Positions 8,961 through 30,332 of a stretch of DNA of 39,577 nt are shown one piece after another. Position numbers and translations under genes: made by a program. How positions within the stretch are numbered: position 1 is the first letter of the stretch; every line of letters begins with the position of its first letter. The notes under the pieces are model-generated. The model worked only from the letters and a program-made list of their open reading frames with translations. It was not told the origin of the DNA and searched no databases. Source of the stretch: Comamonadaceae bacterium (lineage in GTDB: Bacteria; Pseudomonadota; Gammaproteobacteria; Burkholderiales; Burkholderiaceae_C); the NCBI GenBank assembly GCA_947454355.1, contig CANGKR010000004.1, positions 1 to 39,577 on the forward strand, in the 5' to 3' direction.

Positions 8961-8979
8961 ACAAAGCAAGTGCTTGGTT
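8961..8979. promoter_or_regulatory. Operator-like palindrome ACAAAGCAAGTGCTTGGTT in the tetR/livH gap
   Basis: The core CAAG-TG-CTTG with AAA and TTT flanks is a near-perfect dyad. It lies midway between the divergent tetR and livH starts. Its reverse complement occurs with all 19 bases identical at 30314-30332. Size, symmetry and position fit a TetR operator, and the adjacent tetR is the obvious candidate. Confidence 0.75.
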
Positions 8980-9054
8980 TGATCATCATAGTCTTCACGC
9001 ACAAGGTGTCAATCGACCCCCACAAAAACATCACAGGCTGAGGAAACCAACGAG

Positions 9055-9930
9055 ATGCAGGAACTGCAGGTCATTTTCAGTGGGGTGGCACAAGGCTGTA
9101 TTTACGGCCTCATCGCGCTGGGCTTTGTGCTCATTTACAAGGCCACCGAAACGGTGAGCTTCGCCCAAGGCGAGCTCATGATGCTGGGCGCCTTTTGCGG
9201 TCTGGCTTGCGTGAGCTGGATGGGTCTGCCTTATTGGCTAGCCATTCCGGCCGCCATGCTGGCCATGGCGGCGCTGGGTTGGCTGACCGAGCGGGTCGTG
9301 ATTCGCCCGGTGCTGGGGCAACCGGCTTTCTCCATCGTCATGCTGACGATCGGCATCGGCTATGTCGCGCGGGGCCTGGTGACCATGATCCCCGACATCG
9401 GCACCGAAACACTGGCCTTTCCGGTGCCCTACAAAGACACAGTCTTCAATGTCGGCGGTGTGGTGCTGGGCGCCACGCAGGTGGTGGTGGTGGTGGCGAC
9501 CGGCGCCTTGAGTCTGCTGCTGTATCTGATGTTTCGTTTTTCGCGGGTGGGCGTTGCGATGCAAGCGGCTTCGCAAAACCAGCTGGCCGCCTACTACATG
9601 GGCATTCCGGTCAAGCGGCTCAATGGCATGGTCTGGGCGCTGGCCGCGGCGGTGGCGGCCGTGGCGGGCATGCTGCTGGCGCCCATCACCTTTGTGCACG
9701 CCAACATGGGTTTCATTGGCCTGAAAGCCTTTCCCGCGGCGGTGGTCGGCGGCTTTGGCAGCTTGCCTGGAGCGATCGTGGGCGGCGTGATCATCGGTGT
9801 GGTCGAGGCTCTGGCTGGCTTTTGGTTGCCTGAAGGCTTCAAGGACATCGCTGCCTATATCGTGGTGCTGTTGATGCTGGTCCTCCAACCGAACGGTCTG
9901 TTCGGTGAAAAATTGCGCAAGAAGGTCTGA
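9055..9930 (+). CDS. livH: Branched-chain amino acid-type ABC transporter permease, LivH family
   Basis: This 291-residue inner-membrane protein has the LivH fold, with the opening GVAQGCIYGLIALGFVLIYKATETVSFAQGE and later GGFGSLPGAIVGGVIIGVVEAL near residues 238-260. About eight hydrophobic segments can be seen. It forms half of the channel of a HAAT-family importer with LivM. It is the first gene of a six-gene operon, and livM follows after three bases. The substrate need not be an amino acid: an acyl-CoA ligase is encoded in the same operon, so a carboxylic acid is more likely. Confidence 0.93.
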   Translation: MQELQVIFSGVAQGCIYGLIALGFVLIYKATETVSFAQGELMMLGAFCGLACVSWMGLPYWLAIPAAMLAMAALGWLTERVVIRPVLGQPAFSIVMLTIGIGYVARGLVTMIPDIGTETLAFPVPYKDTVFNVGGVVLGATQVVVVVATGALSLLLYLMFRFSRVGVAMQAASQNQLAAYYMGIPVKRLNGMVWALAAAVAAVAGMLLAPITFVHANMGFIGLKAFPAAVVGGFGSLPGAIVGGVIIGVVEALAGFWLPEGFKDIAAYIVVLLMLVLQPNGLFGEKLRKKV

Positions 9931-9933
9931 CCC

Positions 9934-11010
9934 ATGCGGTTCATTTTCAAAACCGATTACGACCAGGACATTCGCCTGTTCCAGCACGGCGGCCATGTGT
10001 TTTGGTATGGCTTGTTGCTGACCTTTCTGGCAACCGCACCGTGGCTGATCGACGAGTATTGGTTGGCCCAAATGACCTTTGTGATGATCTACGGCGTCGT
10101 GGGTCTGGGCTTGATGCTGCTGGCAGGCTTCACGGGTTTGTTCTCGATGGGCCATGCCGCGTTTTTGGGTGTAGGCGCCTACACAGAAGCCGTGCTCACG
10201 GCGCAGGGCTGGCCGTTTCCGCTGTCCTTGGCGATGGCAGCCGGTTTGTCGGCGGCGGTGGGTGCGGTGGTGGGCTTGCCCGCCTTGCGGGTCAAGGGCA
10301 TTTACCTGGGCATTGCCACTCTGTCGTTCGGTTTCATCGTCGAAGAAGGCCTGGCCCGTTGGGACAGCGTGACCGGTGGCAATGCGGGCATGCATGTGAA
10401 GGCAATCAACCTGTGGGGCCTGGACACCAGCAGCAATGAAGGCTTTTATGCGGTGTGCCTGGTGGTCACGGTGCTCTCCACCCTGGCGGTCATGAACCTG
10501 CTGCGCAGCCCCACAGGCCGCGCTTTTGTGGCGATCCGTGATTCCGAAATTTCCGCGCAAAGCATGGGTATCCACTTGGCGCGCTACAAAACCCTGTCTT
10601 TCATGATCTCGGCGGCTCTGGCTGGCGTGGGCGGGGCTTTGTATGCGCACAAGCTCCAATTCATCAGCCCGGATCAGTTCAACATCCTGCAATCGGTGGA
10701 CTTGTTGCTGTTGGTGGTCATTGGCGGTTTGGGCTCGATCCACGGCGCCTTCCTGGGGGCGATCTTTCTGATCACCATGCCGCAATTGATTTCTTTGGGC
10801 AAAGACTTTCTGCCTGCCTTCATCGGCCAGGCGCCTGGCTTGCAAGGACTGGTCTATGGCCTGGTGTTGATCGCTTTTGTGATGTTCGAGCCCATGGGCC
10901 TGTATGGCCGATGGCTGAAGATACGCACCTGGTTCCAGCTGTTCCCGTTTTACCGCAAAGGTATGTTCAAGCGGCAAAAGAGTTTCCAGAAATCGGACCG
11001 ACTGAAATGA
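9934..11010 (+). CDS. livM: Branched-chain amino acid-type ABC transporter permease, LivM family
   Basis: This 358-residue membrane protein has the LivM signature GLGLMLLAGFTGLFSMGHAAFLGVGAY (about 57-83) and VIGGLGSIHGAFLGAIFL near residues 263-280. Several strongly hydrophobic segments and a basic C-terminal tail are visible. It pairs with LivH as the second half of the channel. Its stop overlaps the livG start as ATGA, which indicates translational coupling. Confidence 0.93.
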   Translation: MRFIFKTDYDQDIRLFQHGGHVFWYGLLLTFLATAPWLIDEYWLAQMTFVMIYGVVGLGLMLLAGFTGLFSMGHAAFLGVGAYTEAVLTAQGWPFPLSLAMAAGLSAAVGAVVGLPALRVKGIYLGIATLSFGFIVEEGLARWDSVTGGNAGMHVKAINLWGLDTSSNEGFYAVCLVVTVLSTLAVMNLLRSPTGRAFVAIRDSEISAQSMGIHLARYKTLSFMISAALAGVGGALYAHKLQFISPDQFNILQSVDLLLLVVIGGLGSIHGAFLGAIFLITMPQLISLGKDFLPAFIGQAPGLQGLVYGLVLIAFVMFEPMGLYGRWLKIRTWFQLFPFYRKGMFKRQKSFQKSDRLK

Positions 11011-11804
11011 GCGAAATCCTACTTTCTGCACACAACCTGTCGGTGCGCTTTGGTGGCGTGCTGGCGGTCAACAACGTCAGCTTCGATGTGCGGCGTGGTG
11101 AAGTCTTCACCTTGATCGGCCCGAACGGTGCGGGCAAGACCACGGTCTTTAATTTGATCAGCCGCATCTATACCCCTACCACCGGACACATCGACTTCAA
11201 GGGCAAGACACTGACCCAAGTGCCACCCCACGCGGTGGCTGGGCTGGGCATTGCCCGCACCTTTCAGAACATCGAATTGTTTGAACATGCCAGCGTGCTG
11301 CAAAACCTGCTGATCGGCAGGCATGTGCATAACCGCACCGGCTTTTGGAGCCAATTGCTGTTCAGTCGCAGCGTGCACGAGGCCGAGTTGGCCACGCGGC
11401 GCAAGGTCGAGGAAGTGATTGAATTTTTGGACCTTCAGCATTACCGAGACACCCTGGTAGCCGGTCTGCCATATGGCGTGCGCAAGGTGGTCGAGTTGGC
11501 CCGCGCCCTGAGCACAGAGCCCGAGCTTTTGTTGCTCGATGAGCCGTCCTCGGGTTTGAACGTCGAAGAAACCAGCGATATGGCCTTTTGGATCCAGGAC
11601 ATCCAACACGATCTGGGCATCACCGTGTTGATGGTCGAGCACGACATGAGCTTGGTCTCTAAGGTTTCAGACCGTGTGCTGGCGATGAACCAGGGCGAAG
11701 TCTTGGCCTTGGGCACACCCGCGCAGGTACAGGCTGATGCGGCGGTGATCGAGGCCTACCTCGGCGGCGCCGATGACGCAGCCAGTTTGCGCCGCACAGC
11801 ATGA
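11007..11804 (+). CDS. livG: Branched-chain amino acid-type ABC transporter ATP-binding protein, LivG family
   Basis: This 265-residue ATPase has Walker A GPNGAGKTT (about 37-45) and Walker B LLLLDEPSSGLN. The LivG-type insert is GLGIARTFQNIELFEHASVLQNLLIG, and the switch histidine is in VEHDM. The signature loop reads LPYGVRKVVELARAL rather than the canonical LSGGQ, as is common in LivG. It powers transport at the cytoplasmic face. The start at 11007 (MSEILLSAH) is chosen over the longer frame from 10911, because it overlaps the livM stop by four bases and leaves a normal N-terminus. Confidence 0.93.
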   Translation: MSEILLSAHNLSVRFGGVLAVNNVSFDVRRGEVFTLIGPNGAGKTTVFNLISRIYTPTTGHIDFKGKTLTQVPPHAVAGLGIARTFQNIELFEHASVLQNLLIGRHVHNRTGFWSQLLFSRSVHEAELATRRKVEEVIEFLDLQHYRDTLVAGLPYGVRKVVELARALSTEPELLLLDEPSSGLNVEETSDMAFWIQDIQHDLGITVLMVEHDMSLVSKVSDRVLAMNQGEVLALGTPAQVQADAAVIEAYLGGADDAASLRRTA

Positions 11805-11814
11805 GGAGCACACC

Positions 11815-12585
11815 ATGACGACATTGCTCCAACTGCTCAACGTAGAAAGCGCTTACGGCCCGATCCGCGCCATTCGCGGGGTCAGCCTGAAAGTGCAAGC
11901 CGGCCAGATCGCCACCATTCTGGGCTCCAACGGCGCAGGCAAGACCACCACACTCAAAACCATCTCGGGCATCATCGATCCGCGCAAAGGCTCGGTGGAA
12001 TTCAAGGGCGAGAACATCACGGCGATGGACCCCTCGCTCATCGTGCAGCGCGGGGTCGCCCATGTGCCTGAAGGGCGTGAGGTGTTTCCTCTGCTGTCCA
12101 TCAAAGACAACCTGTTGATGGGTGCCTACACCCGCCAGGATCGGGACGGTGTGGCACGGGACATGGAGGCGGTGTTCGCTTACTTCCCGATCCTCAAAGA
12201 GCGGCAACTGCAAGACGCGGGCTTGCTCTCCGGCGGTCAACAGCAAATGCTGGCCATCTCGCGCGCCCTCATGGCCCAGCCCGAATTGATCTTGCTGGAC
12301 GAGCCCAGCCTGGGCTTATCACCCAAACTCACCAAAGAGATTTTTGAGATCGTGGTGCGTATCAACCGTGAGCGGGGCACCACCATTTTGCTGGTGGAAC
12401 AAAACGCCAATATGGCGCTGAACGTGGCCGATTACGGCTTTGTGCTGGAGTCTGGCCGCATCGTGATGGAAGACACCTGCGCTGCGCTGCGCGAAAAAGA
12501 CGACATCAAAGAGTTTTACCTCGGCATGAAAGAAGACGGCGCCCGCGCCGAACGCCGCTGGAAAAAGAAGAAGACCTGGAGATAA
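11815..12585 (+). CDS. livF: Branched-chain amino acid-type ABC transporter ATP-binding protein, LivF family
   Basis: This 256-residue second ATPase shows Walker A GSNGAGKTT, signature LLSGGQQQMLAISRAL, Walker B LILLDEPSLGLS and switch histidine position VEQN, all typical of LivF. It forms a heterodimer with LivG. The ATG at 11815 has GAGGAG close upstream and follows the livG stop by ten bases. The longer frame from 11773 is rejected because it would extend into livG. The C-terminus is unusually basic (ERRWKKKKTWR), and the ligase gene starts three bases after the stop. Confidence 0.93.
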   Translation: MTTLLQLLNVESAYGPIRAIRGVSLKVQAGQIATILGSNGAGKTTTLKTISGIIDPRKGSVEFKGENITAMDPSLIVQRGVAHVPEGREVFPLLSIKDNLLMGAYTRQDRDGVARDMEAVFAYFPILKERQLQDAGLLSGGQQQMLAISRALMAQPELILLDEPSLGLSPKLTKEIFEIVVRINRERGTTILLVEQNANMALNVADYGFVLESGRIVMEDTCAALREKDDIKEFYLGMKEDGARAERRWKKKKTWR

Positions 12586-12588
12586 ATC

Positions 12589-14448
12589 ATGACTGTCCTC
12601 TGGGATACCTCGGCCCTTCAAGGCCAGCACCAGGTGGTGATGCCCGGCGAGACCATGCCGGACGTGTTCTGGAACGGCGTGGCCCAGCGCGGTGCCAAGC
12701 TGATGATGCGCGAGAAAAAATTGGGCATCTGGCAGGGCTGGAGTTGGACGCAATCGGGCACCGCTGTTCGTGAAATCACCATGGGTTTGGTGGCACTCGA
12801 CTTTGTGCCGGGCGAATGCGCATCGATTCTGGCCAGTACCCGGTTGGAGTGGGTACTGGCCGATCTGGCCGTGCTGAGCGCCGGTGGCGTGTCCAATGGC
12901 ATTTATCCGACTGACGCCGCCACACAGGTGCAGTACCTGTGCGAAGACTCGGCCACAGTGGTCCTGTTCGTGGAAGACGAAGAGCAACTCGACAAAGCTT
13001 TGACGGCCCGCGAGCACCTGCCCCGCCTGCGCAAGATCGTGGTGCTCGACATGGAGGGGCTTACCCGCTATACCGACCCGATGGTGATCAGCCTGGACGC
13101 TCTGCGCGAACTGGGCCGCACGCACGATCAGGCTCACCCCCGCGTGTTCGATCAGGTGCGGCAAAGCCGCCGCCCCGAAGACCTGGCCATCTTGATTTAC
13201 ACCTCGGGCACCACCGGCAAGCCCAAGGGTGCAATGCACAACCATGCGGCCCTGGTGTACATGTGCCGTGGCTACAACCAGGTCATCGTGCAAGATGAGC
13301 ATGACGAGCGCATGCTGTTTTTACCCTTGTGCCATGTGGCCGAGCGGCTGGGTGGTCAGTATTTTTCGATCTACACGGGCACCATCCTGAACTTTGTCGA
13401 GAACCCCGACACCGTGCCCGAAAACGTGCGCGAGATCGCCCCCACCACCTTTACCGCTGTGCCGCGTGTGTGGGAAAAATTTTATTCATCGGTCACCATC
13501 GCGGTGTCCGAGTCCGACAAGCTGCAGCAAGTAATCTACCGCTGGGCGCTGGGCATGGGCTACCAAGTCAGCGACCGGGTCACCAAGGGCCAATCGGTGC
13601 CACTGTGGCTCAAGGCCTGCTTTTACGTGGGCCGCTGGTTGGCGCTTGATAATGTGCGGCGCATGATCGGCATCCACCGCGCCAAAGTGCTGGTCACGGG
13701 TGCGGCGCCCATCTCGCCCGACCTGGTGCGCTGGTACCTGGCACTGGGAGTCCCGATGATCGAGGCCTGGGGCATGACCGAGTCCTGCGGTGCGGCCACG
13801 GTGATGCCCGCCGACAAAATCAAAGCCGGCTTGATCGGCCCGGCAGCGCCCTTCAATGAAGTGCGGCTCGACCCGGTCACGCAAGAGCTGCTGGTGCGTG
13901 GCCCCAATGTGTTCATGGGCTACCTGAACCTGCCAGACAAAACCGCCGAGACCATCGATGACGAGGGCTGGTTGCACACCGGCGACGTGGGCACGGTGGA
14001 CGATGAAGGGTTTTACCGGATTACCGACCGGATGAAAGACATCATCATCACGGCAGGGGGTAAAAACATCACGCCCAGTGAGTGGGAGAACGAACTGAAG
14101 TTTTCGCCTTATGTCACTGACGCGGTGGTCATTGGCGATCGACGCCCTTATTTGAGCGTGATCATCATGATCGATCTGGAGAACGTCGAGAAGTTTGCTC
14201 AGGACCATGATGTACCGTTTTCCAACTACGCCAGCTTGACCCGTGCCCCCGAAGTGCTGGCCCGCATTCAGGAAGAAATTGACACGGTGAACAAGAAATT
14301 TGCTCGGGTGGAACAGATCAAGCAATTCCGTTTGCTGGACACCCAACTGACCGCTGAAGACGACGAACTCACCCCCACCATGAAGCTCAAGCGCAAGTTT
14401 GTCGAACAAAAATACAGCGACATGATCGAATCGATGTACCGCAGCTGA
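12589..14448 (+). CDS. AMP-forming acyl-CoA ligase (long-chain fatty-acid-CoA ligase-like)
   Basis: This 619-residue member of the adenylate-forming superfamily has the ATP loop YTSGTTGKPKGAM (204-216), then GMTESCGA, the GWLHTGDVG motif and DRMKDIIITAGGKNITPSEWE near the C-terminus. That is the form found in the long-chain acyl-CoA synthetase (FadD15/ACSL-like) subgroup. It would convert an acid plus ATP and CoA to acyl-CoA in the cytoplasm. GGAG lies seven bases before the ATG. Its place between livF and livK strongly suggests that it activates the compound brought in by that transporter. The acid itself is unknown: a fatty, branched isoprenoid or aryl-alkanoic acid are all possible. Confidence 0.88.
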   Translation: MTVLWDTSALQGQHQVVMPGETMPDVFWNGVAQRGAKLMMREKKLGIWQGWSWTQSGTAVREITMGLVALDFVPGECASILASTRLEWVLADLAVLSAGGVSNGIYPTDAATQVQYLCEDSATVVLFVEDEEQLDKALTAREHLPRLRKIVVLDMEGLTRYTDPMVISLDALRELGRTHDQAHPRVFDQVRQSRRPEDLAILIYTSGTTGKPKGAMHNHAALVYMCRGYNQVIVQDEHDERMLFLPLCHVAERLGGQYFSIYTGTILNFVENPDTVPENVREIAPTTFTAVPRVWEKFYSSVTIAVSESDKLQQVIYRWALGMGYQVSDRVTKGQSVPLWLKACFYVGRWLALDNVRRMIGIHRAKVLVTGAAPISPDLVRWYLALGVPMIEAWGMTESCGAATVMPADKIKAGLIGPAAPFNEVRLDPVTQELLVRGPNVFMGYLNLPDKTAETIDDEGWLHTGDVGTVDDEGFYRITDRMKDIIITAGGKNITPSEWENELKFSPYVTDAVVIGDRRPYLSVIIMIDLENVEKFAQDHDVPFSNYASLTRAPEVLARIQEEIDTVNKKFARVEQIKQFRLLDTQLTAEDDELTPTMKLKRKFVEQKYSDMIESMYRS

Positions 14449-14483
14449 AGCAGCTCAACCCCTTCATAACCCTAGGAGATGAC

Positions 14484-15644
14484 ATGAAGTTCCAACTGAT
14501 CACCACCCTGGCGGCCCTCGCCTTCAGTGGCGCCGCCCTTGCGCAGCAAGGCGTGAGCAAAACCGAAATCACGGTGGGCACCATCCAGGACTTGTCCGGC
14601 CCGCTGGCCGGCTACGGCAAAGCCGTGCGCAACGGCATGATGCTGCGCATCGACGAAGTCAATGAACAAGGCGGCGTGCATGGCCGCAAGCTCAAGCTGA
14701 TCACCGAAGACTCAGGCTACGACCCCAAGCGCGCAGTGCTGGCCGCGCAAAAGCTGGTCAACCAGGACAAGATCTTCATCATGGCCGGCCACATTGGCAC
14801 CGCCCAAAACAACGCCGCCATGCCGGTGCAGATTGACAAAAAGATCGTCAACTTCATGCCCGTGACCGCTGCGCGTGAAATGTACGAACCCCTGAGTAAA
14901 TACAAGTACGCCTTGTTTGCCACCTACTTCGACCAAATGCGCGCCTCGGTCAGCGCCTTGGCCAAAGAGAAAAAGGTCAACAAAGTCTGCGCCATTTACC
15001 AAGACGATGAGTTCGGCCTGGAAGTGCTGCGCGGGGCTGAAGCCAGCCTGAAAACCATCAACATGGACTTTGTCGAAAAGACGTCCTACAAGCGTGGCGC
15101 CACAGACTTCTCGTCGCAAGTGGCCCGCATGAAGGGCGCTGGTTGCGAAATGGTCGTGCTCGGCACCATCATCCGCGAGACCGTGGGCACGATCGCCGAG
15201 TCGCGCAAAACCGGCTTCAACCCGATCTTCATTGGCTCCAGCGCGGCTTACACCGACTTGATCCACAAGCTCGGCGGCAAAGCCATGGACGGCATGTACG
15301 CCACCATGACCGTGCCTCACCCGTACCTGGACGAAGCCTCTAACCCCATCCGTTTCTGGGCCAACAAGTACAAGACCAAGTTCAACGAAGACCCCACCGT
15401 GTTCTCGGTCTATGGCTACGTGATTCTGGACTCCTTCATCCAAGCTGCTCAAAAAGCCGGCCCGAACCTGACCAGCGACAGCTTCATTGCGACGATGGAC
15501 AAGATGACCTTCCCTGCCGACATCTTCGGCAGCCCCGAAGGTGTCTTCACGCCCACGAAACACTTGGGCTCCAACAAATCACGTCTGTCGCAAATCCAGG
15601 ACGGCAAGTGGAAAGTGATCTCCGAATACTACAAGCTCGACTGA
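14484..15644 (+). CDS. livK: Branched-chain amino acid-type ABC transporter substrate-binding protein, LivK family
   Basis: This 386-residue periplasmic protein has a clear Sec signal (MKFQLITTLAALAFSGAALAQ, cleavage near 20). The type I binding-protein fold starts at ITVGTIQDLSGPLAGYGKAVRNG and continues with NEQGGVHGRKLKLITEDSGYDPKRAV. It should bind the substrate for LivHMGF. AGGAG lies five bases before the ATG. It is the last gene of the operon, as the terminator right after the stop shows. The sequence is nearer to the broad aliphatic or aromatic acid and amide group of this family than to classic leucine binders, but the ligand cannot be read from it. Confidence 0.92.
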   Translation: MKFQLITTLAALAFSGAALAQQGVSKTEITVGTIQDLSGPLAGYGKAVRNGMMLRIDEVNEQGGVHGRKLKLITEDSGYDPKRAVLAAQKLVNQDKIFIMAGHIGTAQNNAAMPVQIDKKIVNFMPVTAAREMYEPLSKYKYALFATYFDQMRASVSALAKEKKVNKVCAIYQDDEFGLEVLRGAEASLKTINMDFVEKTSYKRGATDFSSQVARMKGAGCEMVVLGTIIRETVGTIAESRKTGFNPIFIGSSAAYTDLIHKLGGKAMDGMYATMTVPHPYLDEASNPIRFWANKYKTKFNEDPTVFSVYGYVILDSFIQAAQKAGPNLTSDSFIATMDKMTFPADIFGSPEGVFTPTKHLGSNKSRLSQIQDGKWKVISEYYKLD

Positions 15645-15663
15645 TCAAAGACCCTCTGCTTTG

Positions 15664-19495: not shown

Positions 19496-19580
19496 AGAGT
19501 TTCATCTATTTATAAAGTTATGAGAATCGATTTTACAAAACATAGAGGACTGCCTACCATCGGCTCCAAGGAACACTGTT
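19496..19580. promoter_or_regulatory. AT-rich divergent control region of lysR and sbtA
   Basis: These 85 bases are clearly more AT-rich than their neighbours. TTA-N8-TGA followed by TGA-N8-TTA can be read around 19510-19534, roughly the TNA-N7/8-TNA pattern known for CbbR-type sites. The match is loose and not decisive. AAGGA lies about nine bases before the sbtA ATG. Confidence 0.35.
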
Positions 19581-22221: not shown

Positions 22222-24194
22222 GCTTCCTTGGCTGCGGGCGGGACATCCGCCTGGATTTCGACCACCACGCGACTGGCGGGGACTTGGTCACCGCTGGCCA
22301 CATGCACCGCCGTTACCGTGCCGGCCACTGGCGCGGCATGGACATGTTCCATTTTCATGGCTTCGAGAGTGACCAGCGCCTGCTGGGCTTGCACACGGTC
22401 GCCCACCGCAACAGACACGGCCACCACGCGGCCGTTCATCGTGGCGCGCACTTTGCCGTCACCTCCTTGCTCGCCGGGTCGGACGCCGACCTCGCGGGTG
22501 AGGTCTTGTACCTGGTAGGGGCGCCCAGCCCAGTGGAGCCACAGGCTCTGGCCATCGCGCACGAAAGGAACGCTTTGCAACACTCGGTCCACGATCAATC
22601 GCACGCCGTTCGTCCCGTGGGACACCATGGTCACCGCGTGGGACGCATCGGCCACCTGCACACTGAACTGCTGCGCGCTGGTTTGGGTGACAGTGGCCCT
22701 GTGCCGGGTTCCGTCCAAGGACAGATGCACCGCAACGGGCAAGCTGTGCGCCAGGCGGGAGGCACTCAAGGCTGCGCCCCCGCTGTGATGCAGCAGCCAA
22801 GCGGCCACGGCCAGAGCGCGTGAATCAGAGACTTCGTGCAACAACTCGGCCTCATGCTGGGCAATGAACGCGGTGGTAGCGCCCCCTTGAGCAAACACCG
22901 GCTGCGCCAGACTGCGCTGCAAAAAGCTTTGATTGGTTTTGACGCCCAAGGCCACCAGGTCGTGCAGCGCCGACTGCATCTGCCGCAGGGCGTTGGCACG
23001 GTCGCGGCCATGGGCAATGACTTTGGCCACCATCGAGTCGTAATACGGCGGGATGCTGGCACCATCGGCCAAGGCATGCTCCACACGCACACCCTCGGGC
23101 AGTTGCCACTGCAGCAAGGTGCCACTTTGCGGCATGAATCCGGCAGGCACATCTTCGGCGCACAGACGCACCTCGATGGCATGACCTTGCCAACGCACAT
23201 CTTCTTGCTGCATCGGCAGGGGTTCGCCTGCGGCCACGCGCAGTTGCCACGCCACCAAGTCCAGGCCGGTGATGGCTTCAGTCACCGGGTGTTCCACCTG
23301 CAAGCGGGTGTTCATTTCCATGAAATAAAAATGCCCTTCGCGGTCCAGCAAAAACTCCAGCGTGCCCGCGCCCTCATAAGCAATGGCTTTGACAGCAGCC
23401 ACCGCGGTGGCGCCCATGCGCACGCGCAAGGCGGCGTCCACCGCAGGAGATGGCGCTTCTTCGATGACCTTTTGATGGCGGCGTTGTACCGAGCAATCGC
23501 GCTCACCCAAGTGAATCGCGTGGCCATGCCGGTCGGCAAAAATCTGGATTTCGATGTGGCGCGGCTGTTCAATCGCTCGCTCCAAAATCACGGTGGCATC
23601 GCCAAAAGCATTCAAGGCTTCGGACTGCGCACTGCGCAGCAGCTCGGCAAATTCATTGGCTTGATGCACCAAGCGCATGCCTCGCCCACCACCACCGGCT
23701 GTGGCCTTGATCATCACCGGGTAACCGATCTGAGCAGCCTGTATGGCCAGGTGTTCTGCGCTTTGGTCCTCACCCTGATAGCCCGGAATGCAGGGCACAC
23801 CGGCGGCCATCATGAGGCGTTTGGCACCGGCTTTATCGCCCATGGCACGAATGGCTTCGGGCGAGGGGCCGATGAACACCAGGCCCGCATCGCGGCAAGC
23901 TTGAGCGAAGTCTTCGTTTTCGGCCAGAAAACCATAGCCCGGGTGCACCGCATCGGCTCCAGTCAGGCGCGCAGCGTCGAGGATGGCGGGGATGTTCAAG
24001 TACGACTGCGCAGGCAAGGGCTCGCCAATACACACCGCCTCGTGCGCAGCCAGCACATGTGCGGCGTGCGCATCGGCGGTGGAATACACCGCCACGGTGC
24101 GGTAACCCAGGGCATGGGCGCTGCGGATCACGCGCAGAGCGATTTCACCGCGGTTGGCTATCAGGACTTTGTGGAAGGGGGTCACGGGTTTCAT
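22218..24194 (-). CDS. atuF: Biotin-dependent acyl-CoA carboxylase alpha subunit, probable geranyl-CoA carboxylase (AtuF-like)
   Basis: This 658-residue protein has a biotin carboxylase part, with FHKVLIANRGEIALRVIRSA at the start, ATP-grasp loop KATAGGGGRGMR, and FYFMEMNTRLQVEHPVTE. A linker domain follows, and the C-terminal biotin carrier has EAMKMEH with the biotinylated lysine near 614. It charges biotin with CO2 for the beta subunit. Geranyl-CoA and 3-methylcrotonyl-CoA carboxylase alpha subunits are alike, so the AtuF call depends on AtuA and AtuC nearby. The ATG at 24194 has AGGA seven bases upstream, and the longer frame to 24269 would invade atuC. It lies between atuC and atuE in one operon. 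Confidence 0.8.
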   Translation of the reverse strand: MKPVTPFHKVLIANRGEIALRVIRSAHALGYRTVAVYSTADAHAAHVLAAHEAVCIGEPLPAQSYLNIPAILDAARLTGADAVHPGYGFLAENEDFAQACRDAGLVFIGPSPEAIRAMGDKAGAKRLMMAAGVPCIPGYQGEDQSAEHLAIQAAQIGYPVMIKATAGGGGRGMRLVHQANEFAELLRSAQSEALNAFGDATVILERAIEQPRHIEIQIFADRHGHAIHLGERDCSVQRRHQKVIEEAPSPAVDAALRVRMGATAVAAVKAIAYEGAGTLEFLLDREGHFYFMEMNTRLQVEHPVTEAITGLDLVAWQLRVAAGEPLPMQQEDVRWQGHAIEVRLCAEDVPAGFMPQSGTLLQWQLPEGVRVEHALADGASIPPYYDSMVAKVIAHGRDRANALRQMQSALHDLVALGVKTNQSFLQRSLAQPVFAQGGATTAFIAQHEAELLHEVSDSRALAVAAWLLHHSGGAALSASRLAHSLPVAVHLSLDGTRHRATVTQTSAQQFSVQVADASHAVTMVSHGTNGVRLIVDRVLQSVPFVRDGQSLWLHWAGRPYQVQDLTREVGVRPGEQGGDGKVRATMNGRVVAVSVAVGDRVQAQQALVTLEAMKMEHVHAAPVAGTVTAVHVASGDQVPASRVVVEIQADVPPAAKEA

Positions 24195-24208
24195 GAGGGT
24201 TTCCTGCT

Positions 24209-25828
24209 TCAAGGACGAGCGACCGAGAACTGCATTTTTTGCGGCTCTCGGGCCTGGGCTTCTCGGCATACGGCCAGCACTTGCGCCAACACCGCACGGG
24301 TATCTCGCGGATCGATCACACCATCGTCGAGCAGCATCGCGCTGGTGGTGAAGACACTCATCTGGCTGTCAAAACGCTCGACGATGCGACGGCTCATTTC
24401 ATCGAGCTGAGCTTCATCGACTGCGCCTTTGCGGCGCATACCGGCTTCGGTGACGATGCGCATGGTGCCGGCAGCTTGCTCACCACCCATGACCGCGGTT
24501 TTGGCGTTCGGCCAGCTGAAGCAAAAACGCGGATGAAAGCCCCGCCCGCACATGCCGTAGTTACCTGCGCCAAAAGAGGCGCCGCAGTAGATCGTGATTT
24601 GAGGCACGGTGGCATTGGTTACAGCCTGGATCATCTTGGAGCCGTGTTTGATGATGCCTGCTTCTTCGTAAGCTTTGCCCACCATGTAACCGGTGGTATT
24701 GTTCAAATACAAAATAGGCGTGCGCGACTGACAGCAGGCCTGGATGAAGTGCGTGGCCTTGGCCGCGCCGGCTGGATCGATCGGCCCGTTGTTGGTGATG
24801 ACGCCCACCGACCAGCCTTCGATTTGAATGTGGCCACACACCGTAGCGCTGCCATAGTTTTCAGAGAACTCCAGAAAGTCCGAGTCGTCCGCAATGCGCG
24901 CAATCACCTGCTTCATGTCGACAGGGCGCTTGTGGTCGTCGGGCATGATGCCCAAGAGTTCTTCAGCGTCGTAACGCGGCGGCTTGTAGTTGCGCACTGG
25001 CGGTTGCGGGGTATCGCGGTCCCAGTCGAGCTTGGCCAGGATGTCGCGGGCAATGCGCAAGCCGTCGCGGTCGTCTTCGGCCAGGTAGTCACCCAGGCCC
25101 GAGATGCTGGTGTGCATCACCGCGCCACCCAACTCTTCTTCGGTCGCCACTTCGCCGGTGGCCGCTTTGAGCAAAGGCGGGCCGGCCAGAAAAGCCCGTG
25201 AGCGCCCGCGCACCAAAATAATATAGTCCGACAAACCCGTTTGGTAGGCCCCACCCGCGGTCGATGAACCGTGTGTCACGGTGACCACCGGCAAGCCAGC
25301 AGCCGACATGCGCGCCAGGTTGCGGAAGGTGCTGCCGCCGCGCACAAAGTCTTCCACCCGATAGGTCATTAAATTGGCGCCTGCGCTTTCCACGAGTTGC
25401 ACGTAGGGCAGTTTGTTTTCCAGCGTGAGTTCTTGCACGCGCAAGAGTTTGTCCAGGCCTTTGGGTTGCAGCGCGCCTGCGTCGATGCCCGAGTCCGACG
25501 CCATGACCATGCAGCGCACACCGCTGACATAACCGATGCCCGCAATCACACCGCCGCCGGGCACTGTTTTTTGCGGGTCAGGGGTGTCCAAGCCATAACC
25601 GGCCAAAGTGCACAACTCTAGAAAAGGCGCACCCGGGTCCAGTAACAAGGCTAAGCGTTCGCGGGGCAGCAGCTGTTGGCGTTTTTCAAAACGCTCACGC
25701 GAAGTGGCCGACTTGTCGCGGGCGCGCTGTTCACTCTGGCGTACGCGCTCTAACAGCGCGAGCATGTGCTCACGGTTGACGGCAAAGGCCGGGCTGTTCA
25801 ATGAGATCGTGGATTCAATCTGGGGCAT
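24209..25828 (-). CDS. atuC: Biotin-dependent carboxyltransferase beta subunit, probable geranyl-CoA carboxylase (AtuC-like)
   Basis: This 539-residue carboxyltransferase is close in length to P. aeruginosa AtuC. It shows GAPFLELCTLAGYGLDTPDPQKTVPGGGVIAGIGYV, THGSSTAGGAYQTGLSDYIILV and FGAGNYGMCGRGFHPRFCFSWPN. Methylcrotonyl-CoA carboxylases usually read GGAYVPAMSDE at the second site, and the different QTGLSDY here fits the geranyl-CoA type. It would add the carboxyl group to the gamma-methyl of cis-geranyl-CoA. ATG 25828 is used, because the frame to 25858 starts with TTG over the previous stop. No clear ribosome site is visible, so coupling to the upstream dehydrogenase is likely. Confidence 0.8.
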   Translation of the reverse strand: MPQIESTISLNSPAFAVNREHMLALLERVRQSEQRARDKSATSRERFEKRQQLLPRERLALLLDPGAPFLELCTLAGYGLDTPDPQKTVPGGGVIAGIGYVSGVRCMVMASDSGIDAGALQPKGLDKLLRVQELTLENKLPYVQLVESAGANLMTYRVEDFVRGGSTFRNLARMSAAGLPVVTVTHGSSTAGGAYQTGLSDYIILVRGRSRAFLAGPPLLKAATGEVATEEELGGAVMHTSISGLGDYLAEDDRDGLRIARDILAKLDWDRDTPQPPVRNYKPPRYDAEELLGIMPDDHKRPVDMKQVIARIADDSDFLEFSENYGSATVCGHIQIEGWSVGVITNNGPIDPAGAAKATHFIQACCQSRTPILYLNNTTGYMVGKAYEEAGIIKHGSKMIQAVTNATVPQITIYCGASFGAGNYGMCGRGFHPRFCFSWPNAKTAVMGGEQAAGTMRIVTEAGMRRKGAVDEAQLDEMSRRIVERFDSQMSVFTTSAMLLDDGVIDPRDTRAVLAQVLAVCREAQAREPQKMQFSVARP

Positions 25829-25854
25829 GGCGTTGACTTTCGGGGAGATGCATT

Positions 25855-27024
25855 TCAAATGCCCAGCTGGCGGGCAGCCAGGTCTTTCATGATTTCTTCG
25901 GAGCCACCGCCGATCATCATGACCTTGACCTCGCGGTAAATGCGCTCGGATCGGGTGCCCCGCATGAAGCCCATGCCGCCGAGAATTTGCACCGCTTGAT
26001 CGGCGCAGAACTGCATGGCCTGTGTGGACAAAATTTTGGCCATACAGGTGCGTGCCACCAGATGCGCGGGATCGCCCACCTGATGCTGCACCTGCCAGGC
26101 CAGCTCATACACCAAGCTGCGCGCCGCCTCGATGCGCATGGCCATGTCGACCAATTTGTGGCGAATGACTTGGCGGCTCGACAAGATCTCGCCAAAGGTA
26201 CGGCGCTCGCGCGCCCATTCGGTGGCCTCATGCAAACAGACCTGCGCAAACATACAGGCTTGCGCTGACATGCCCAGGCGTTCAGCGTTGAAGTTGTTCA
26301 TGAAGACCTTGAAGCCTTGGTTCTCTATGCCTAGCAAATGTCCCACCGGCACACGCACCTGGTCAAAGCGAAGGTGGGCCGTGTCTGAAGCCCACCAGCC
26401 CATTTTGTTCAAAGGTGTGCGGGTCAAACCCGGGGTATTGCACTCAACCAACAGGGCTGAGACCCCTCCGGCGCCCTTGTTGTTCGGGTCGGTGCGCACC
26501 GCAACCGTCAAATAGTCAGCCCGCATGCCGGAGGTGATGAACACCTTTTCGCCCGTGACCACGTAATGGTCACCGTCGCGCACGGCGGTGGTTTTGAGCG
26601 AGGCCACGTCAGACCCGCCACCGGGTTCAGTGACCGCCAAGCCAGCGATTTTTTCGCCGCGCAAGACGGCCGGTACCACCCGCTGCTTGAGGGCCTCACT
26701 GCCATAGGCGTTGACGGGTGGCAGGCCGATGGTGTGCGAGAGCAATGAAGCTGAGACACCACCGCTGCCCGAGCGCGCCATTTCTTCGGCGGTGATGAGG
26801 TGGTAAAAAATATCAGCCGGTGTGCCGCCCAGAGCCTCGGGGTAGCCGATGCCCAGTGCACCCAGTTGAGCGATTTTCGCGTACAGCTCGCGCGGGAAGC
26901 TCTCGGCTTCGTCCCATTCGTTCACATGAGGCGTGATTTCACGGGCGACAAAATCGCGCAAGGCCGCGCGGTAATCGGCGTGCTCGGCGTTGAAGTAATG
27001 TGGCAATGCCTGGGTGTCCAACAT
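25855..27024 (-). CDS. Acyl-CoA dehydrogenase, isovaleryl-CoA dehydrogenase-like active site
   Basis: This 389-residue flavoprotein has the family segments LAVTEPGGGSDVASLKTTAV (129-148) and VFITSGMRADY. The late GGMGFMRGTRSERIYREVKVMMIGGGSEEIMKDL holds Gly where many members have the catalytic Glu. Instead Glu248 in NAERLGMSA matches the base used by isovaleryl-CoA dehydrogenase, which acts on branched substrates. It heads the carboxylase-hydratase operon, so it may oxidise citronellyl-CoA or a later methyl-branched intermediate. A second dehydrogenase at 29072-30226 looks closer to AtuD. The ATG at 27024 has an AGG nearby. Confidence 0.87.
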   Translation of the reverse strand: MLDTQALPHYFNAEHADYRAALRDFVAREITPHVNEWDEAESFPRELYAKIAQLGALGIGYPEALGGTPADIFYHLITAEEMARSGSGGVSASLLSHTIGLPPVNAYGSEALKQRVVPAVLRGEKIAGLAVTEPGGGSDVASLKTTAVRDGDHYVVTGEKVFITSGMRADYLTVAVRTDPNNKGAGGVSALLVECNTPGLTRTPLNKMGWWASDTAHLRFDQVRVPVGHLLGIENQGFKVFMNNFNAERLGMSAQACMFAQVCLHEATEWARERRTFGEILSSRQVIRHKLVDMAMRIEAARSLVYELAWQVQHQVGDPAHLVARTCMAKILSTQAMQFCADQAVQILGGMGFMRGTRSERIYREVKVMMIGGGSEEIMKDLAARQLGI

Positions 27025-27139
27025 GACCTGTAACCTGCTTGGTGATCGATACCGCCAGCATAAACCTCTGAGTGCCCAGCTTCATGTTCAAAGTGGTCAC
27101 AGAACCCTAGGAAAACACCGATAACCCTGCCAAGATTGT

Positions 27140-27149
27140 CACCTAGGTG
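27140..27149. promoter_or_regulatory. Perfect palindrome CACCTAGGTG, copy 2, in the dehydrogenase/atuA gap
   Basis: This is the same ten-base palindrome as at 16118-16127. A further CCTAGG hexamer lies 36 bases upstream (27106-27111), so a regulator might bind twice in this 205-base divergent gap. The rest of 27025-27229 shows only a partial match to the TetR-type operator near 27031-27042 and no convincing promoter. Confidence 0.5.
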
Positions 27150-27229
27150 CACGGCATTTTTGTGGGGCACGGCCAAGATGACAGGCACTCCACGCCATGT
27201 GGCCACATCACCTCGTTTCAAGTTTCAAT

Positions 27230-29038
27230 ATGTCCGATTCCACGCCTGAACCTTCTTCCCGCCGTGCGGTGCGCATCGGTGGTGCCTCTGGTTTTTGGGG
27301 CGACAGCGTCCTGGGCGCCACGCAATTGGCCCATTCCGGGCTGATCGACTACCTGGTGTTTGACTACCTGGCCGAGACCACCATGGCGATTTTGGCTTCG
27401 GTACGCACCAAGAAACCCGAGATGGGTTATGCCACCGACTTTGTTGACATTGCCATGAAAGCTGTCTTGCCTGTGGTCATGCAACGCGGCATCAAAGTGG
27501 TGGCCAATGCCGGCGGCATGAACCCGCAAGGTTGTGCCGATGCCTTGCAAGCCCTGGCACAGGGCATGGGCCTGCACCCGAAGATCGCTGTCGTACTGGG
27601 CGACGACATCAGTGCGCAGTTGCCTGCATTGCGCGAGGCGGGCACCCTTGACATGTTTCGCGGCGAACATTTGCCCGCCAAGGTGCTGTCGGCCAATGCC
27701 TATTTGGGCGCGATCCCGGTGGCACGCGCTCTCGCTGAGGGGGCAGACATTGTGATCACCGGTCGCGGCGTGGACAGCGCGGTGACCTTGGGCCCCTTGA
27801 TGCACGAATTCGGTTGGGGCCCACAGGACTATGACCAGCTCGCAGGCGGTAGTCTGGCCGGACACATCATTGAATGCGGCTGTCAGGCGACGGGTGGTCT
27901 GCACACCGATTGGCAAGACATCCCCGACTGGCCGAACATCGGCTACCCCATCATCGATTGCTTTGCCGATGGCAGCTTTGAATTGCATAAAACGCCCGGT
28001 ACTGGAGGCCGGATTTTGCGCGCCGCAGTGGCCGAACAATTGCTCTATGAAATTGGCGACCCAGGGGCCTATATGCTGCCCGATGTCTGCTGCGATTTCA
28101 GGTCGGTGCGCATGGAGCAGCTCAGCCCCGAACGGGTGCGGGTGTCCGGTGCGCGCGGTAGTTCGCCGGGTGTGCATTACAAGGTCTCAGCTACCGCCAT
28201 GGATGGCTTTCGATGCACCGGCAGCATGTTGATCATCGGCATTGACGCGGCGGCCAAGGCCCGCCGCACGGGCGAGTCGATTTTGGCCCGCACCCGCACG
28301 ATGCTGCAGCAACATGGTTGGCCAGACTACACCAGCGCCACGGTGGACCTGCTCGGTGCCGAAACCCTGTACGGCCCGCATACCCGCGCGGGCAGTGCTC
28401 GCGAGGTGATGGTGCGCGTCGTCGTCAGCCACCCGCTCAAACAGGCGCTGGAGATGTTTGCCAAAGAAATCTCACCCGCCGGTACCTCTTGGTCGCCCGG
28501 CACCACAGGGCCTGGCGGCGGACGACCCACGCCCTCGCCACACATCAAGCCCTTTTCGTTTTTGGTCGACAAGTCCAGTGTGGCTGTCACGGTGCGCATG
28601 GGCGATCAGGTCTGGCCTGTGGCCGTGCCTGTAGACGCGGCTGTGGGCAGTGCATCGAGTTTGCCATCACCCGCACCTTGGGTAGAGACCGGCGAAGCCC
28701 TGGTCGAAGTGCCCTTGATCCGGCTGGCCTGGGCGCGCAGTGGCGACAAGGGTGACATCTCCAACATCGGCCTGGTGGCGCGGCGCCCTGAATGGTTACC
28801 GCTGCTGTGGGCCCGCGTCACACCCGAGGTGGTCAAGGCCTATTTCTCGCACCTGGTGCAAGGCCAGGTGGAGCGTTTTCACTTGCCCGGCATCGATGCG
28901 ATGAACCTGGTCATGCACGAAGCCCTGGGTGGCGGCGGCCCTGCATCTACCCGCAATGATCCTCTGGGCAAGGGCATGGGCCAAATCCTGCTGGACATGC
29001 CTGTTCAAGTGCCTGTGTCGATCGCTTCATCCTGTTGA
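27230..29038 (+). CDS. atuA: Acyclic terpene utilisation protein AtuA family
   Basis: This 602-residue protein has the AtuA (DUF1446) domain over most of its length: RIGGASGFWGDSVLGATQL, DYLVFDYLAETTMAIL, VVANAGGMNPQGCADAL (about 88-104) and GADIVITGRGVDSAVTLGPL. It is followed by a C-terminal AtuA-like domain with LAWARSGDKGDISNIGLVARR. In Pseudomonas AtuA is needed for growth on citronellol and geraniol, but its reaction is not established. The ATG at 27230 (MSDST) is preferred to one at 27197. Neither has a good ribosome site. It is divergent from the dehydrogenase-carboxylase operon and convergent with the second dehydrogenase. This gene is the main reason to call the cluster Atu rather than Liu. 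Confidence 0.88.
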   Translation: MSDSTPEPSSRRAVRIGGASGFWGDSVLGATQLAHSGLIDYLVFDYLAETTMAILASVRTKKPEMGYATDFVDIAMKAVLPVVMQRGIKVVANAGGMNPQGCADALQALAQGMGLHPKIAVVLGDDISAQLPALREAGTLDMFRGEHLPAKVLSANAYLGAIPVARALAEGADIVITGRGVDSAVTLGPLMHEFGWGPQDYDQLAGGSLAGHIIECGCQATGGLHTDWQDIPDWPNIGYPIIDCFADGSFELHKTPGTGGRILRAAVAEQLLYEIGDPGAYMLPDVCCDFRSVRMEQLSPERVRVSGARGSSPGVHYKVSATAMDGFRCTGSMLIIGIDAAAKARRTGESILARTRTMLQQHGWPDYTSATVDLLGAETLYGPHTRAGSAREVMVRVVVSHPLKQALEMFAKEISPAGTSWSPGTTGPGGGRPTPSPHIKPFSFLVDKSSVAVTVRMGDQVWPVAVPVDAAVGSASSLPSPAPWVETGEALVEVPLIRLAWARSGDKGDISNIGLVARRPEWLPLLWARVTPEVVKAYFSHLVQGQVERFHLPGIDAMNLVMHEALGGGGPASTRNDPLGKGMGQILLDMPVQVPVSIASSC

Positions 29039-29071
29039 GATCCATCCCGCTGCAGCCGCTGGCTGCAAGAC

Positions 29072-30226
29072 TTAACGGTTTTTCGGCAAGGTGTGCATGT
29101 GCTTGCTGATGATGCCCAGCATGACCTCGTCTGCACCGCCACCGATGGAAGCCAAGCGCCCGTCGCGGTACAAGCGTGAGACGGGGTTGTCCCAGGTGAA
29201 GCCCATGCCTCCCCAGTATTGCAGGCAACTGTCGGGCACGGTGCGCAGCAAGCGGCCGGCTTTGAGTTTGGCCATGGAGGCCCATTCGGTCACGTCCTTG
29301 CCAGCCAGGTAGTACTCGGTGGCCATGTAGGTCAAGGCGCGCAGGCATTCGACTTCGGTTTTGAGTTCGGCCATCTTGAAGTGCACCGTCTGGTTGTCCA
29401 GAATGGACTTGCCAAAAGCCATGCGCTCACCGGTGTAGGCGATGGTTTGTTCAATGCAATTGGTCAAGGACTGGATCGCATTGGCCGCAGCCCACAAACG
29501 TTCTTCCTGGAACTGCTTCATCTGGTAGGTAAAGCCCAAGCCTTCTTCGCCGATGCGGTTGCGCTGGGGCACACGTACATCGTCAAAATGAATCAACCCA
29601 GTGTCGCTGGACATCATGCCGATCTTGCGGATTTTCTTGGCGACCGTGATGCCCGGTGTGTTCATCGGCACGATGATCAGGCTTTTGTTTTTGTGCGCTG
29701 GGCCCTCGGAGGTATTGGCCAGCAAACACATCCAGTCGGCCTGCAGGCTGTTGGTGATCCACATCTTGCCGCCGTTGATGACGTAGTCGTCGCCGTCCTT
29801 GCGGGCGGTGGTTTTGACCGAGGCCACATCCGAGCCGGCACCGGGTTCTGACACGCCAATGCACGCGACCATGTCGCCTGAGATGGCAGGGGCCAGAAAC
29901 TCTTGGCGCAATGCGTCAGACCCAAAACGCGCCAGCGCTGGTGTCGCCATGTCGGTTTGCACACCGATGGCCATGGGCAGGCCGCCACACTGAATATGGC
30001 CCAGGGTTTCGGCCATCGCCACAGCATAAGAATAGTCCAGCCCCGCGCCGCCGTAGGCTTCGGGCTTGGTCAACCCCAAGTAGCCAAGCTGGCCGAGTTT
30101 CTTGAAGACTTCGTGAGCCGGAAAGATCTCGGCCGCCTCCCATTCGTCCACATGGGGATTGATCTCGTCATCGATGAAACGCTTGAGGTTACGTTGCAGT
30201 TCTTCGTGTTCGTGGGTCAATTGCAT
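29072..30226 (-). CDS. atuD: Acyl-CoA dehydrogenase, probable citronellyl-CoA dehydrogenase (AtuD-like)
   Basis: This 384-residue flavoprotein starts THEHEELQRNLKRFIDDEINPHVDEWEAAEIFP and has IGVSEPGAGSDVASVKTTARKDGDDYVINGGKMWITNSLQADW (123-165). The late catalytic position is Gly (SIGGGADEVMLGI), and Glu242 in EERLWAA is the likely base, as in isovaleryl-CoA dehydrogenase. The overall form agrees with what I remember of AtuD, which oxidises citronellyl-CoA to geranyl-CoA. This is family memory, not a search. It is convergent with atuA and divergent from the thiolase gene, and it shares with the latter a gap holding the 19-base operator. Confidence 0.85.
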   Translation of the reverse strand: MQLTHEHEELQRNLKRFIDDEINPHVDEWEAAEIFPAHEVFKKLGQLGYLGLTKPEAYGGAGLDYSYAVAMAETLGHIQCGGLPMAIGVQTDMATPALARFGSDALRQEFLAPAISGDMVACIGVSEPGAGSDVASVKTTARKDGDDYVINGGKMWITNSLQADWMCLLANTSEGPAHKNKSLIIVPMNTPGITVAKKIRKIGMMSSDTGLIHFDDVRVPQRNRIGEEGLGFTYQMKQFQEERLWAAANAIQSLTNCIEQTIAYTGERMAFGKSILDNQTVHFKMAELKTEVECLRALTYMATEYYLAGKDVTEWASMAKLKAGRLLRTVPDSCLQYWGGMGFTWDNPVSRLYRDGRLASIGGGADEVMLGIISKHMHTLPKNR

Positions 30227-30284
30227 GCAGGTCTCCGAGGGGTCTTCCAGGGCGGTGCCACAGGGGGGTTGGGGTGTTCAAAGT

Positions 30285-30319
30285 GAGGTCAATCGGGAGG
30301 TCAACTGGGCGTCAACCAA
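30285..30319 (+). repeat. Three short direct repeats (GAGGTCAAYYGG type) before the operator
   Basis: GAGGTCAATCGG, GAGGTCAACTGG and the slightly shorter GCGTCAACC follow each other with steps of 12 and 11-12 bases, about one helical turn. The last runs into the 19-base operator. Repeated half-sites on one DNA face suggest an activator or cooperative binding. Chance cannot be excluded. Confidence 0.4.
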
Positions 30320-30332
30320 GCACTTGCTTTGT
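30314..30332. promoter_or_regulatory. Operator-like site AACCAAGCACTTGCTTTGT in the dehydrogenase/thiolase gap
   Basis: This is an exact 19-base reverse-complement copy of 8961-8979. It lies between divergent acyl-CoA dehydrogenase and thiolase genes and covers the -35 box of the best thiolase promoter, a position that fits repression. Confidence 0.78.

What the first reader, a model, noticed from the sequence alone, without database searches (positions are those of the whole stretch)
8961..30332. One 19-bp operator shared by two acyl-CoA regions 21 kb apart
Positions 8961-8979 and 30314-30332 are exact reverse complements over 19 bases and are near-palindromic. Both lie in divergent promoter gaps, the first beside a tetR gene, the second covering the -35 box of the thiolase promoter. 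Seen directly: the identity and positions. Inferred: the TetR at 8228-8914 represses its own operon (CoA-transferase), the liv-ligase operon, the AtuD-like dehydrogenase and thiolase-fadB. This would place transport, CoA activation and beta-oxidation in one regulon.
Basis: partly seen in the sequence, partly recalled or inferred. Interest (0 to 1): 0.75.

Follow-up and report, generated by a model that had tools for sequence, protein, structure and literature searches.

The report
AtuR-like two-operator catabolic switch
In this freshwater bacterium the same 19-base DNA switch site, kept in its close relatives, sits in front of a carboxylic-acid import-and-activation operon and of a beta-oxidation operon, and very probably lets one repressor of the known AtuR type turn both on together.

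Summary
The 19-mer occurs exactly twice in the window and twice in the 2.69 Mb, 85% complete genome, each time in a divergent promoter gap. Comparison with relatives supports the interpretation. All 10 genomes found with a close TetR (at least 71% identical) carry the box on the tetR side with 0-3 mismatches. All 9 of them in which the thiolase gene was found carry it there exactly. In 18 same-genus genomes with a diverged TetR (about 40-52%) a related box stays at the thiolase promoter, but 0 of 8 have it at livH, so the joint wiring is not universal in the genus. The box contains AGCAAGTGCTTGG, 12 of 13 bases of the published AtuR site, and the neighbouring carboxylase best matches geranyl-CoA carboxylase. 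I read it as an AtuR-like local, acyl-CoA-responsive repressor of an isoprenoid or branched-acid catabolic cluster. Orthology to AtuR was not shown; FadP and LiuQ could not be tested. In this genome the atuCDEF operon itself has no box. Binding, effector and substrate are inferred. It is a solid new member of a known kind.

The parts
8228..8914 (-). tetR: AtuR-like TetR-family repressor (TetR_N + TetR_C_24)
   Evidence: Pfam TetR_N and TetR_C_24; TetR fold, near folds include acyl-CoA-bound AibR and FadR
8961..8979 (+). operator 1, 5 bp downstream of the -10 of a conserved tetR promoter (TTGACA 9012-9007, N16, TATGAT 8990-8985, minus strand) and 75 bp upstream of livH
   Evidence: 10 of 10 genomes with a close TetR have it with 0-3 mismatches
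7515..8225 (-). scoA-type 3-oxoacid CoA-transferase subunit A, 2 bp after tetR
   Evidence: TIGR02429 above cut-off; spacing
6874..7518 (-). scoB-type 3-oxoacid CoA-transferase subunit B
   Evidence: TIGR02428 above cut-off
9055..12585 (+). livHMGF: branched-chain-amino-acid-type ABC transporter (permeases and ATPases)
   Evidence: LivH, LivM, LivF; the frame at 10911-11804 was not scanned against a library and is called LivG by its place only
12589..14448 (+). acyl-CoA ligase (FadD11-like AMP-binding enzyme, below that model's cut-off)
14484..15644 (+). livK-type periplasmic binding protein
21445..27024 (-). atuE-, atuF-, atuC-, atuD-like genes; carboxylase beta subunit closest to geranyl-CoA carboxylase; no box at this promoter
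27197..29038 (+). atuA-family gene; no box at this promoter
   Evidence: PF07287
29072..30226 (-). acyl-CoA dehydrogenase, divergent from the thiolase
   Evidence: its relatives lie among atu-like genes
30314..30332 (-). operator 2: holds the weak -35 of a thiolase promoter (TTGCTT-N17-CATAAT) and lies just after the -10 of a TTGACA-N17-CACACT promoter reading to the ACAD
   Evidence: exact in 9 of 9 genomes with a close TetR in which the thiolase was found
30423..31628 (+). acetyl-CoA C-acyltransferase (thiolase, PRK08242 family)
   Evidence: NF006090 above cut-off
31632..33773 (+). FadB/FadJ-type multifunctional beta-oxidation protein (below those models' cut-offs)

Best explanation
The gene at 8228-8914 encodes a local TetR-family repressor that works like AtuR. 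As a dimer it binds one palindromic box (consensus AAGC-R-NN-Y-GCTT, extended ACAAAGCANNTGCTTGGT) in two promoter regions. At box 1 it sits just downstream of the -10 of its own promoter, and so represses tetR-scoAB, and it lies upstream of livHMGF-ligase-livK. At box 2 it covers a -35 of thiolase-fadB and the start region of the divergent acyl-CoA dehydrogenase. An acyl-CoA made by the ligase or the CoA-transferase from an imported branched or isoprenoid carboxylic acid most likely releases it, so that import, CoA activation and beta-oxidation switch on together. Shown here: boxes, genes, promoter-like elements, and conservation tied to the TetR. Inferred: binding, repression, effector and substrate.
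For: Only two strong boxes in window and genome. Tied to a close TetR: 10 of 10 tetR-side and 9 of 9 thiolase-side boxes; among 36 same-genus genomes the 4 with a close TetR are the only ones with a match of at most 1 mismatch. Box invariant at 19 of 19 positions in 9 thiolase promoters against 67 of 225 elsewhere, and at 16 of 19 against 60 of 175 in 10 tetR-liv gaps. With a model built only from non-thiolase sites, thiolase promoters score 28.9 (9 of 9, close TetR) and 18.0-24.4 (18 of 18, diverged TetR); about 99.9% of 7,600 shuffles lie at or below 17.7. A more distant TetR (53-57%, G310) has the same tetR|box|livH layout, and in G068 a box stands before a livH 74% identical. 12 of 13 bases agree with the published AtuR site. 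An atuA|box|tetR cluster in another order (L336) carries the AtuR 13-mer exactly. The carboxylase best matches geranyl-CoA carboxylase. Near folds include AibR with isovaleryl-CoA and FadR with stearoyl-CoA.
Against: No binding or expression data. G019, without a TetR match at E 1e-10, still scores 18.9 at its thiolase promoter, inside the diverged-TetR range of 18.0-24.4. G070 has a TetR of the diverged clade and a thiolase 77% identical, yet its thiolase promoter scores only 6.3; five other genomes with distant TetRs score -8.1 to 14.0. The thiolase -35 and the ACAD -10 are weak (3 of 6 bases each) and no promoter was listed for them or for livH, so repression of livH is less certain. The atuCDEF and atuA promoters in this genome have no box. 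The AtuR-type TetR of L336 falls outside the TetR clade of the window, on a long unsure branch.
Confidence: 0.78

Rival explanations
1. The regulator is the Comamonadaceae representative of FadP (or of LiuQ), the TetR regulators predicted by Kazakov et al. 2009, so the box is simply a FadP or LiuQ site.
For: FadP is a TetR regulator of fatty-acid degradation proposed for betaproteobacteria including Comamonadaceae (passages of PMC5343134 and PMC12543098). Thiolase-fadB fits as a target. Outgroup TetRs without atuA, atuC or atuF neighbours also show weaker related boxes (L326 17.8, L323 19.6, L310 16.2).
Against: FadP of Ralstonia solanacearum controls 12 operons, against two strong boxes here. 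The window TetR groups with TetRs that mostly sit beside atu-like genes, apart from an 11-row group mostly without them. But none of the outgroup rows was identified as FadP and the 2009 paper is not held.
Confidence: 0.17
2. A different, unlinked TetR binds both boxes and the neighbouring tetR gene is a bystander.
For: Related TetRs can share CAAGC half-sites; adjacency is not proof; the genome is only 85% complete.
Against: Only one TetR in the assembly reaches E 1e-10 with this protein. The box tracks the presence and the clade of this TetR. Box 1 sits where an autorepressor would sit.
Confidence: 0.06
3. The shared 19-mer is a chance or non-regulatory repeat.
For: 7 of 60 Markov windows hold some exact 19-base repeat.
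Against: Palindromic, in two divergent promoter gaps, conserved in 10 tetR-side and 9 thiolase-side gaps.
Confidence: 0.01

Closest known systems
AtuR of Pseudomonas aeruginosa / RdmA of P. nitroreducens (TetR repressors of the atu/dmg clusters)
   Same: TetR regulator beside an isoprenoid/branched acyl-CoA cluster with a geranyl-CoA-type carboxylase; operator 12 of 13 identical to AGCAAGCGCTTGG (PMC9973270, passages).
   Different: One box per promoter rather than two 13-bp repeats about 40 bp apart; tetR divergent from livH, not atuA; the boxes stand before a Liv-type importer with ligase, before thiolase-fadB and before one ACAD, not before atuA or the carboxylase operon; orthology not shown.
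FadP (betaproteobacterial TetR regulator of fatty-acid degradation)
   Same: TetR family, betaproteobacteria, beta-oxidation targets (passages).
   Different: FadP has 12 target operons in R. solanacearum; here two strong boxes. Sequence and motif of FadP were not available.
AibR and Bacillus subtilis FadR
   Same: TetR folds near the predicted model, solved with isovaleryl-CoA and stearoyl-CoA.
   Different: About 19-24% identity over the aligned part; different targets (recalled).

Membership tests
AtuR | TetR_N plus TetR_C_24 domains | tested here: met
   AtuR's own domain content was not checked, only that of the AtuR-type TetR in L336
AtuR | operator AGCAAGCGCTTGG / CCAAGCGCTTGCT | tested here: met
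   sequence similarity only: 12 of 13 at both boxes; the central base differs; binding not tested
AtuR | two 13-bp repeats about 40 bp apart in one promoter | tested here: not met
   one box in each gap; L336 also has only one copy
AtuR | gene divergent from atuA | tested here: not met
   divergent from livH here; in G012 and G021 tetR is followed by an atuA-like gene
AtuR | groups with AtuR in a tree | tested here: inconclusive
   P. aeruginosa AtuR not obtained; the AtuR-type TetR of L336 falls outside on a long branch
AtuR | represses, relieved by an acyclic terpenoid or its CoA ester | not testable with these tools
   needs experiments
FadP | large fatty-acid-degradation regulon (12 operons in R. 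solanacearum) | tested here: not met
   two strong boxes in an 85% complete genome
FadP | sequence and binding motif of FadP | not testable with these tools
   defining paper not held; no named FadP sequence obtained
LiuQ | controls branched-chain amino acid (liu) genes; LiuQ sequence and motif | not testable with these tools
   defining paper not held; the carboxylase in the window is closer to geranyl-CoA than to methylcrotonyl-CoA carboxylase

The most novel reading that the evidence does not exclude
An AtuR-type operator controls a Liv-type ABC transporter and ligase operon, so that this 'amino-acid' importer is really an inducible importer of isoprenoid or branched carboxylic acids. Sister species of the genus control the same transporter promoter through an unrelated palindrome (CGNACG-NN-CGTTCG), which would be a traceable case of regulatory rewiring of one catabolic island. 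The direction of the change is open, since G310 and G068 outside the genus also have the AtuR-type box at livH.
Probability: 0.4. Interest if true: 0.5.

Novelty: new member of a known kind. Interest (0 to 1): 0.36.

Why it matters
It gives a testable substrate class (isoprenoid or methyl-branched carboxylic acids) to a Liv-type transporter and ligase operon that the family models used here name only as branched-chain-amino-acid-like. It ties that operon to beta-oxidation by a single predicted switch in Limnohabitans-related Comamonadaceae. It also offers a comparative series (same genes, two operator types at livH) for the evolution of catabolic regulons.

Tried and rejected
Looked for other boxes anywhere in the window, the atuD/atuA gap included: the third best score is 11.4, with about 2 at 10 or more expected by chance. 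The third genome hit (C210) lies inside open frames and was set aside. A second palindromic register, centred as in the AtuR 13-mer, was considered; by inspection of the sites the AAGC-R-NN-Y-GCTT register is the one kept. A link between recognition-helix changes (MRSGS, MQPGS) and the box type was considered and dropped because the cases were mixed.

A named AtuR was not obtained: no AtuA-family match in the 14 control genomes, and none seen in the plasmid rows listed (30 of 100 records; 40 of 161). A regulator for the other livH palindrome was sought in two genomes; of the four open frames tested one is a LysR, beside a bicarbonate-transporter gene, and none a TetR. Literature searches whose listings showed no description of this regulon. 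The library lacks Kazakov et al. 2009. The AtuR paper was seen only as cited in PMC3511530 and PMC9973270 (passages).

Fisher tests (27 of 27 against 0 of 11; 22 of 22 against 0 of 3 within the genus) are not corrected for relatedness, their model was partly trained on the tested promoters, and their no-TetR class held six genomes with distant TetRs. One search repeats the test with a model without thiolase sites and with that class split. Dropped rows: G023 (thiolase promoter cut off in its thiolase locus; a box of 21.6 is seen in L201), G011 (thiolase 59% identical), G063 in the livH count (livH lies off the locus), L316 in the tree (mis-read frame).
Full report
OBSERVATION. The 19-mer is at 8961-8979 and, reversed and complemented without a mismatch, at 30314-30332. 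No other place in the window matches with up to 3 mismatches (0.04 expected). In the whole assembly (2.69 Mb, 85% complete) there are two exact copies and one 3-mismatch copy, and none of the reversed control. The third lies inside open reading frames. A looser search (14 fixed bases, up to 2 mismatches) gave 58 hits against 10 for its control. Apart from the two boxes, 48 sequences remained once reverse readings and one duplicate were left out. The best of these scores 16.5 in a position model in which the two boxes score 29.2. An exact 19-base repeat alone would be weak evidence: 7 of 60 Markov windows hold one.

GENES. tetR (8228-8914, -) is followed after 2 bp by scoA and scoB, which overlap by 4 bp, so these are probably one operon. 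Divergent from it run livHMGF, a FadD11-like acyl-CoA ligase and a livK-type binding protein (livG named by place). Further on are atuE/F/C/D-like genes (-), an atuA-family gene (+), an acyl-CoA dehydrogenase (29072-30226, -), and divergent from that a thiolase and a FadB-type protein. The carboxylase beta subunit at 24209-25858 matches geranyl-CoA carboxylase beta at 665 bits against 456 for methylcrotonyl-CoA carboxylase. In my reading of the alignment it has glycine where the latter has the blocking phenylalanine. PMC4673880 (abstract and passages) gives that residue as the determinant of substrate size. The atuE-like gene is not specifically closest to the solved isohexenylglutaconyl-CoA hydratase (4zu2), which ranks thirtieth, so that part of the pathway name is soft.

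PROMOTER ANATOMY. On the tetR side a promoter TTGACA-N16-TATGAT (11 of 12 bases) ends 5 bp before box 1. TTGACA-N16-TAT(G/C)AT is kept in all 10 close-TetR gaps examined but was not found in the more distant G310. On the thiolase side, TTGCTT-N17-(C/G)ATAAT reads to the thiolase with its -35 inside box 2, and TTGACA-N17-CACACT reads to the dehydrogenase with the box directly behind it. Both are present in 9 of 9 promoters. Each has one weak hexamer (3 of 6 bases), and the consensus scanner listed neither. No promoter was found for livH.

CONSERVATION. A genome-contig scan and same-genus searches gave 10 different genomes with a TetR at least 71% identical (window genome, G012, G014 = L010, G021 = L011, G060-G065). 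All 10 have the box on the tetR side: exact in 3, one mismatch in 5, two in 1, three in 1. The thiolase gene was found in 9, and all 9 have the box exactly. In the alignments the box is invariant at 19 of 19 positions in 9 thiolase promoters (67 of 225 elsewhere) and at 16 of 19 in 10 tetR-liv gaps (60 of 175 elsewhere). Among the 36 same-genus genomes the 4 with the close TetR are also the only ones with any match of at most one mismatch.

A SECOND CLADE. Other genomes of the genus carry a diverged TetR (about 40-52% identical), in a separate fully supported clade. Of the 18 counted below, 15 are in that tree; G009, G015 and G028 were assigned by identity. In the 16 loci mapped (L186-L201) it lies next to an acyl-CoA dehydrogenase on the same strand, divergent from thiolase-fadB, with the box near the thiolase. 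In some a further gene lies between (a prolyl-oligopeptidase-type gene in L195). Most also have atuC/atuE-like genes beside it. With a model built only from sites that are not at thiolase promoters, 18 of 18 of their thiolase promoters score 18.0-24.4 and 9 of 9 close-TetR ones 28.9; about 99.9% of 7,600 shuffles lie at or below 17.7. Five genomes with no TetR match or only a 30% one score -3.7 to 18.9; the 18.9 (G019) overlaps the positives and may be a decayed site. Six genomes with distant TetRs score -8.1 to 14.0. One of them, G070, has a TetR of the diverged clade and a thiolase 77% identical but no box (6.3), which counts against a strict link.

THE LIV PROMOTER. At livH, 10 of 10 genomes with tetR beside livH (nine close-TetR ones plus G310 at 53-57%) score 23.2-28.9, while 0 of 8 diverged-TetR genomes exceed 4.2. 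The model was trained on livH-side sites, so only the negative side is an independent result. Outside the genus a box also stands before a livH 74% identical in G068 (L214), so the livH box is not confined to the window lineage, and which state is older is open. The atuA/livH gap of the 8 shows a different palindrome: by inspection CG(C/A)ACG-NN-CGTTCG in 7 of 8 and one base off in L277. A strict pattern found it in the 3 of these scanned, and once inside livM of L307, presumably by chance. In G012 the second box stands before an SDR-like frame (by its TGGGSGIG motif) followed by atuC, ACAD, atuE, atuF and atuD. Boxes about 1 kb from atuC are also seen in G067, G068 and G069. In the window genome the box stands before the ACAD alone, and the atu carboxylase operon has no box.

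IDENTITY OF THE SWITCH. PMC9973270 (passages) reports that AtuR of P. aeruginosa binds AGCAAGCGCTTGG and CCAAGCGCTTGCT upstream of atuA, and that its relative RdmA binds the dmgA promoter, which has the same repeats. Both window boxes contain AGCAAGTGCTTGG or its complement, 12 of 13 identical; no other place in the window has fewer than 2 mismatches. A cluster in another order of the class (L336) has atuA, an SDR gene, atuC, ACAD, atuE, atuF and a second SDR gene, with a divergent TetR, and carries the AtuR 13-mer exactly, once, between atuA and tetR. Its TetR is 36% identical to the window's and falls outside the window clade on a long, unsure branch. The P. aeruginosa protein itself was not obtained. 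So 'works like AtuR' is well supported; 'is the AtuR ortholog' is not shown. FadP and LiuQ could not be compared because the defining paper is not held; two strong boxes are far fewer than the 12 operons reported for FadP of R. solanacearum (PMC12543098, passages).

MECHANISM. The predicted TetR model (mean pLDDT 88) is closest in fold to PfiT, followed by PfmR, BkaR, AibR and FadR among others. AibR and FadR were solved with acyl-CoA ligands. My reading is repression by occlusion at both promoter regions and release by an acyl-CoA formed from the imported acid. Repression of tetR-sco and of thiolase-fadB is the firmest part; of the ACAD next; of livH least firm.

VERDICT. It is a good example of a known kind, with wiring that differs between clades of the genus.

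Noticed in passing
L273:4843, L276:14313, L279:4772 (upstream of livH in diverged-TetR genomes): A different palindrome, CGNACG-NN-CGTTCG-like, is conserved where the window lineage has the AtuR-like box; its regulator was not found.
   Followed up: partly
8917-8929: CTAGGGTTTCCCC just upstream of the tetR start; its GGGTTTCCCC part is invariant in 10 of 10 tetR-liv gaps and holds an inverted repeat GGG-TTT-CCC. Function unknown; no second copy in the window within 2 mismatches.
   Followed up: partly
L337 (G000:C3:25271-26584 in the genome): A second atuA-family gene elsewhere in the genome.
   Followed up: no
19160-19176 and 34110-34126: A 17-base direct repeat GCCAATCAAACGCGGCA, probably chance.
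   Followed up: no
8228-8914: The nearest solved structure of the TetR is PfiT ('transcriptional regulator I2'), called a superantigen by its depositors; by sequence it is a TetR regulator. A Crohn's disease link of I2 is recalled, not checked.
   Followed up: no
18584-21421: A LysR gene, a Na+-dependent bicarbonate transporter (Sbt) gene and a DUF6671 gene lie inside the catabolic island; a similar Sbt gene lies in the island of G010 (L273).
   Followed up: no
L323:1658-10189: A distant TetR (34%) lies in one strand-run with liv-type genes, a FadD-like ligase and a thiolase, with a weaker box (19.6) upstream of the liv genes.
   Followed up: no
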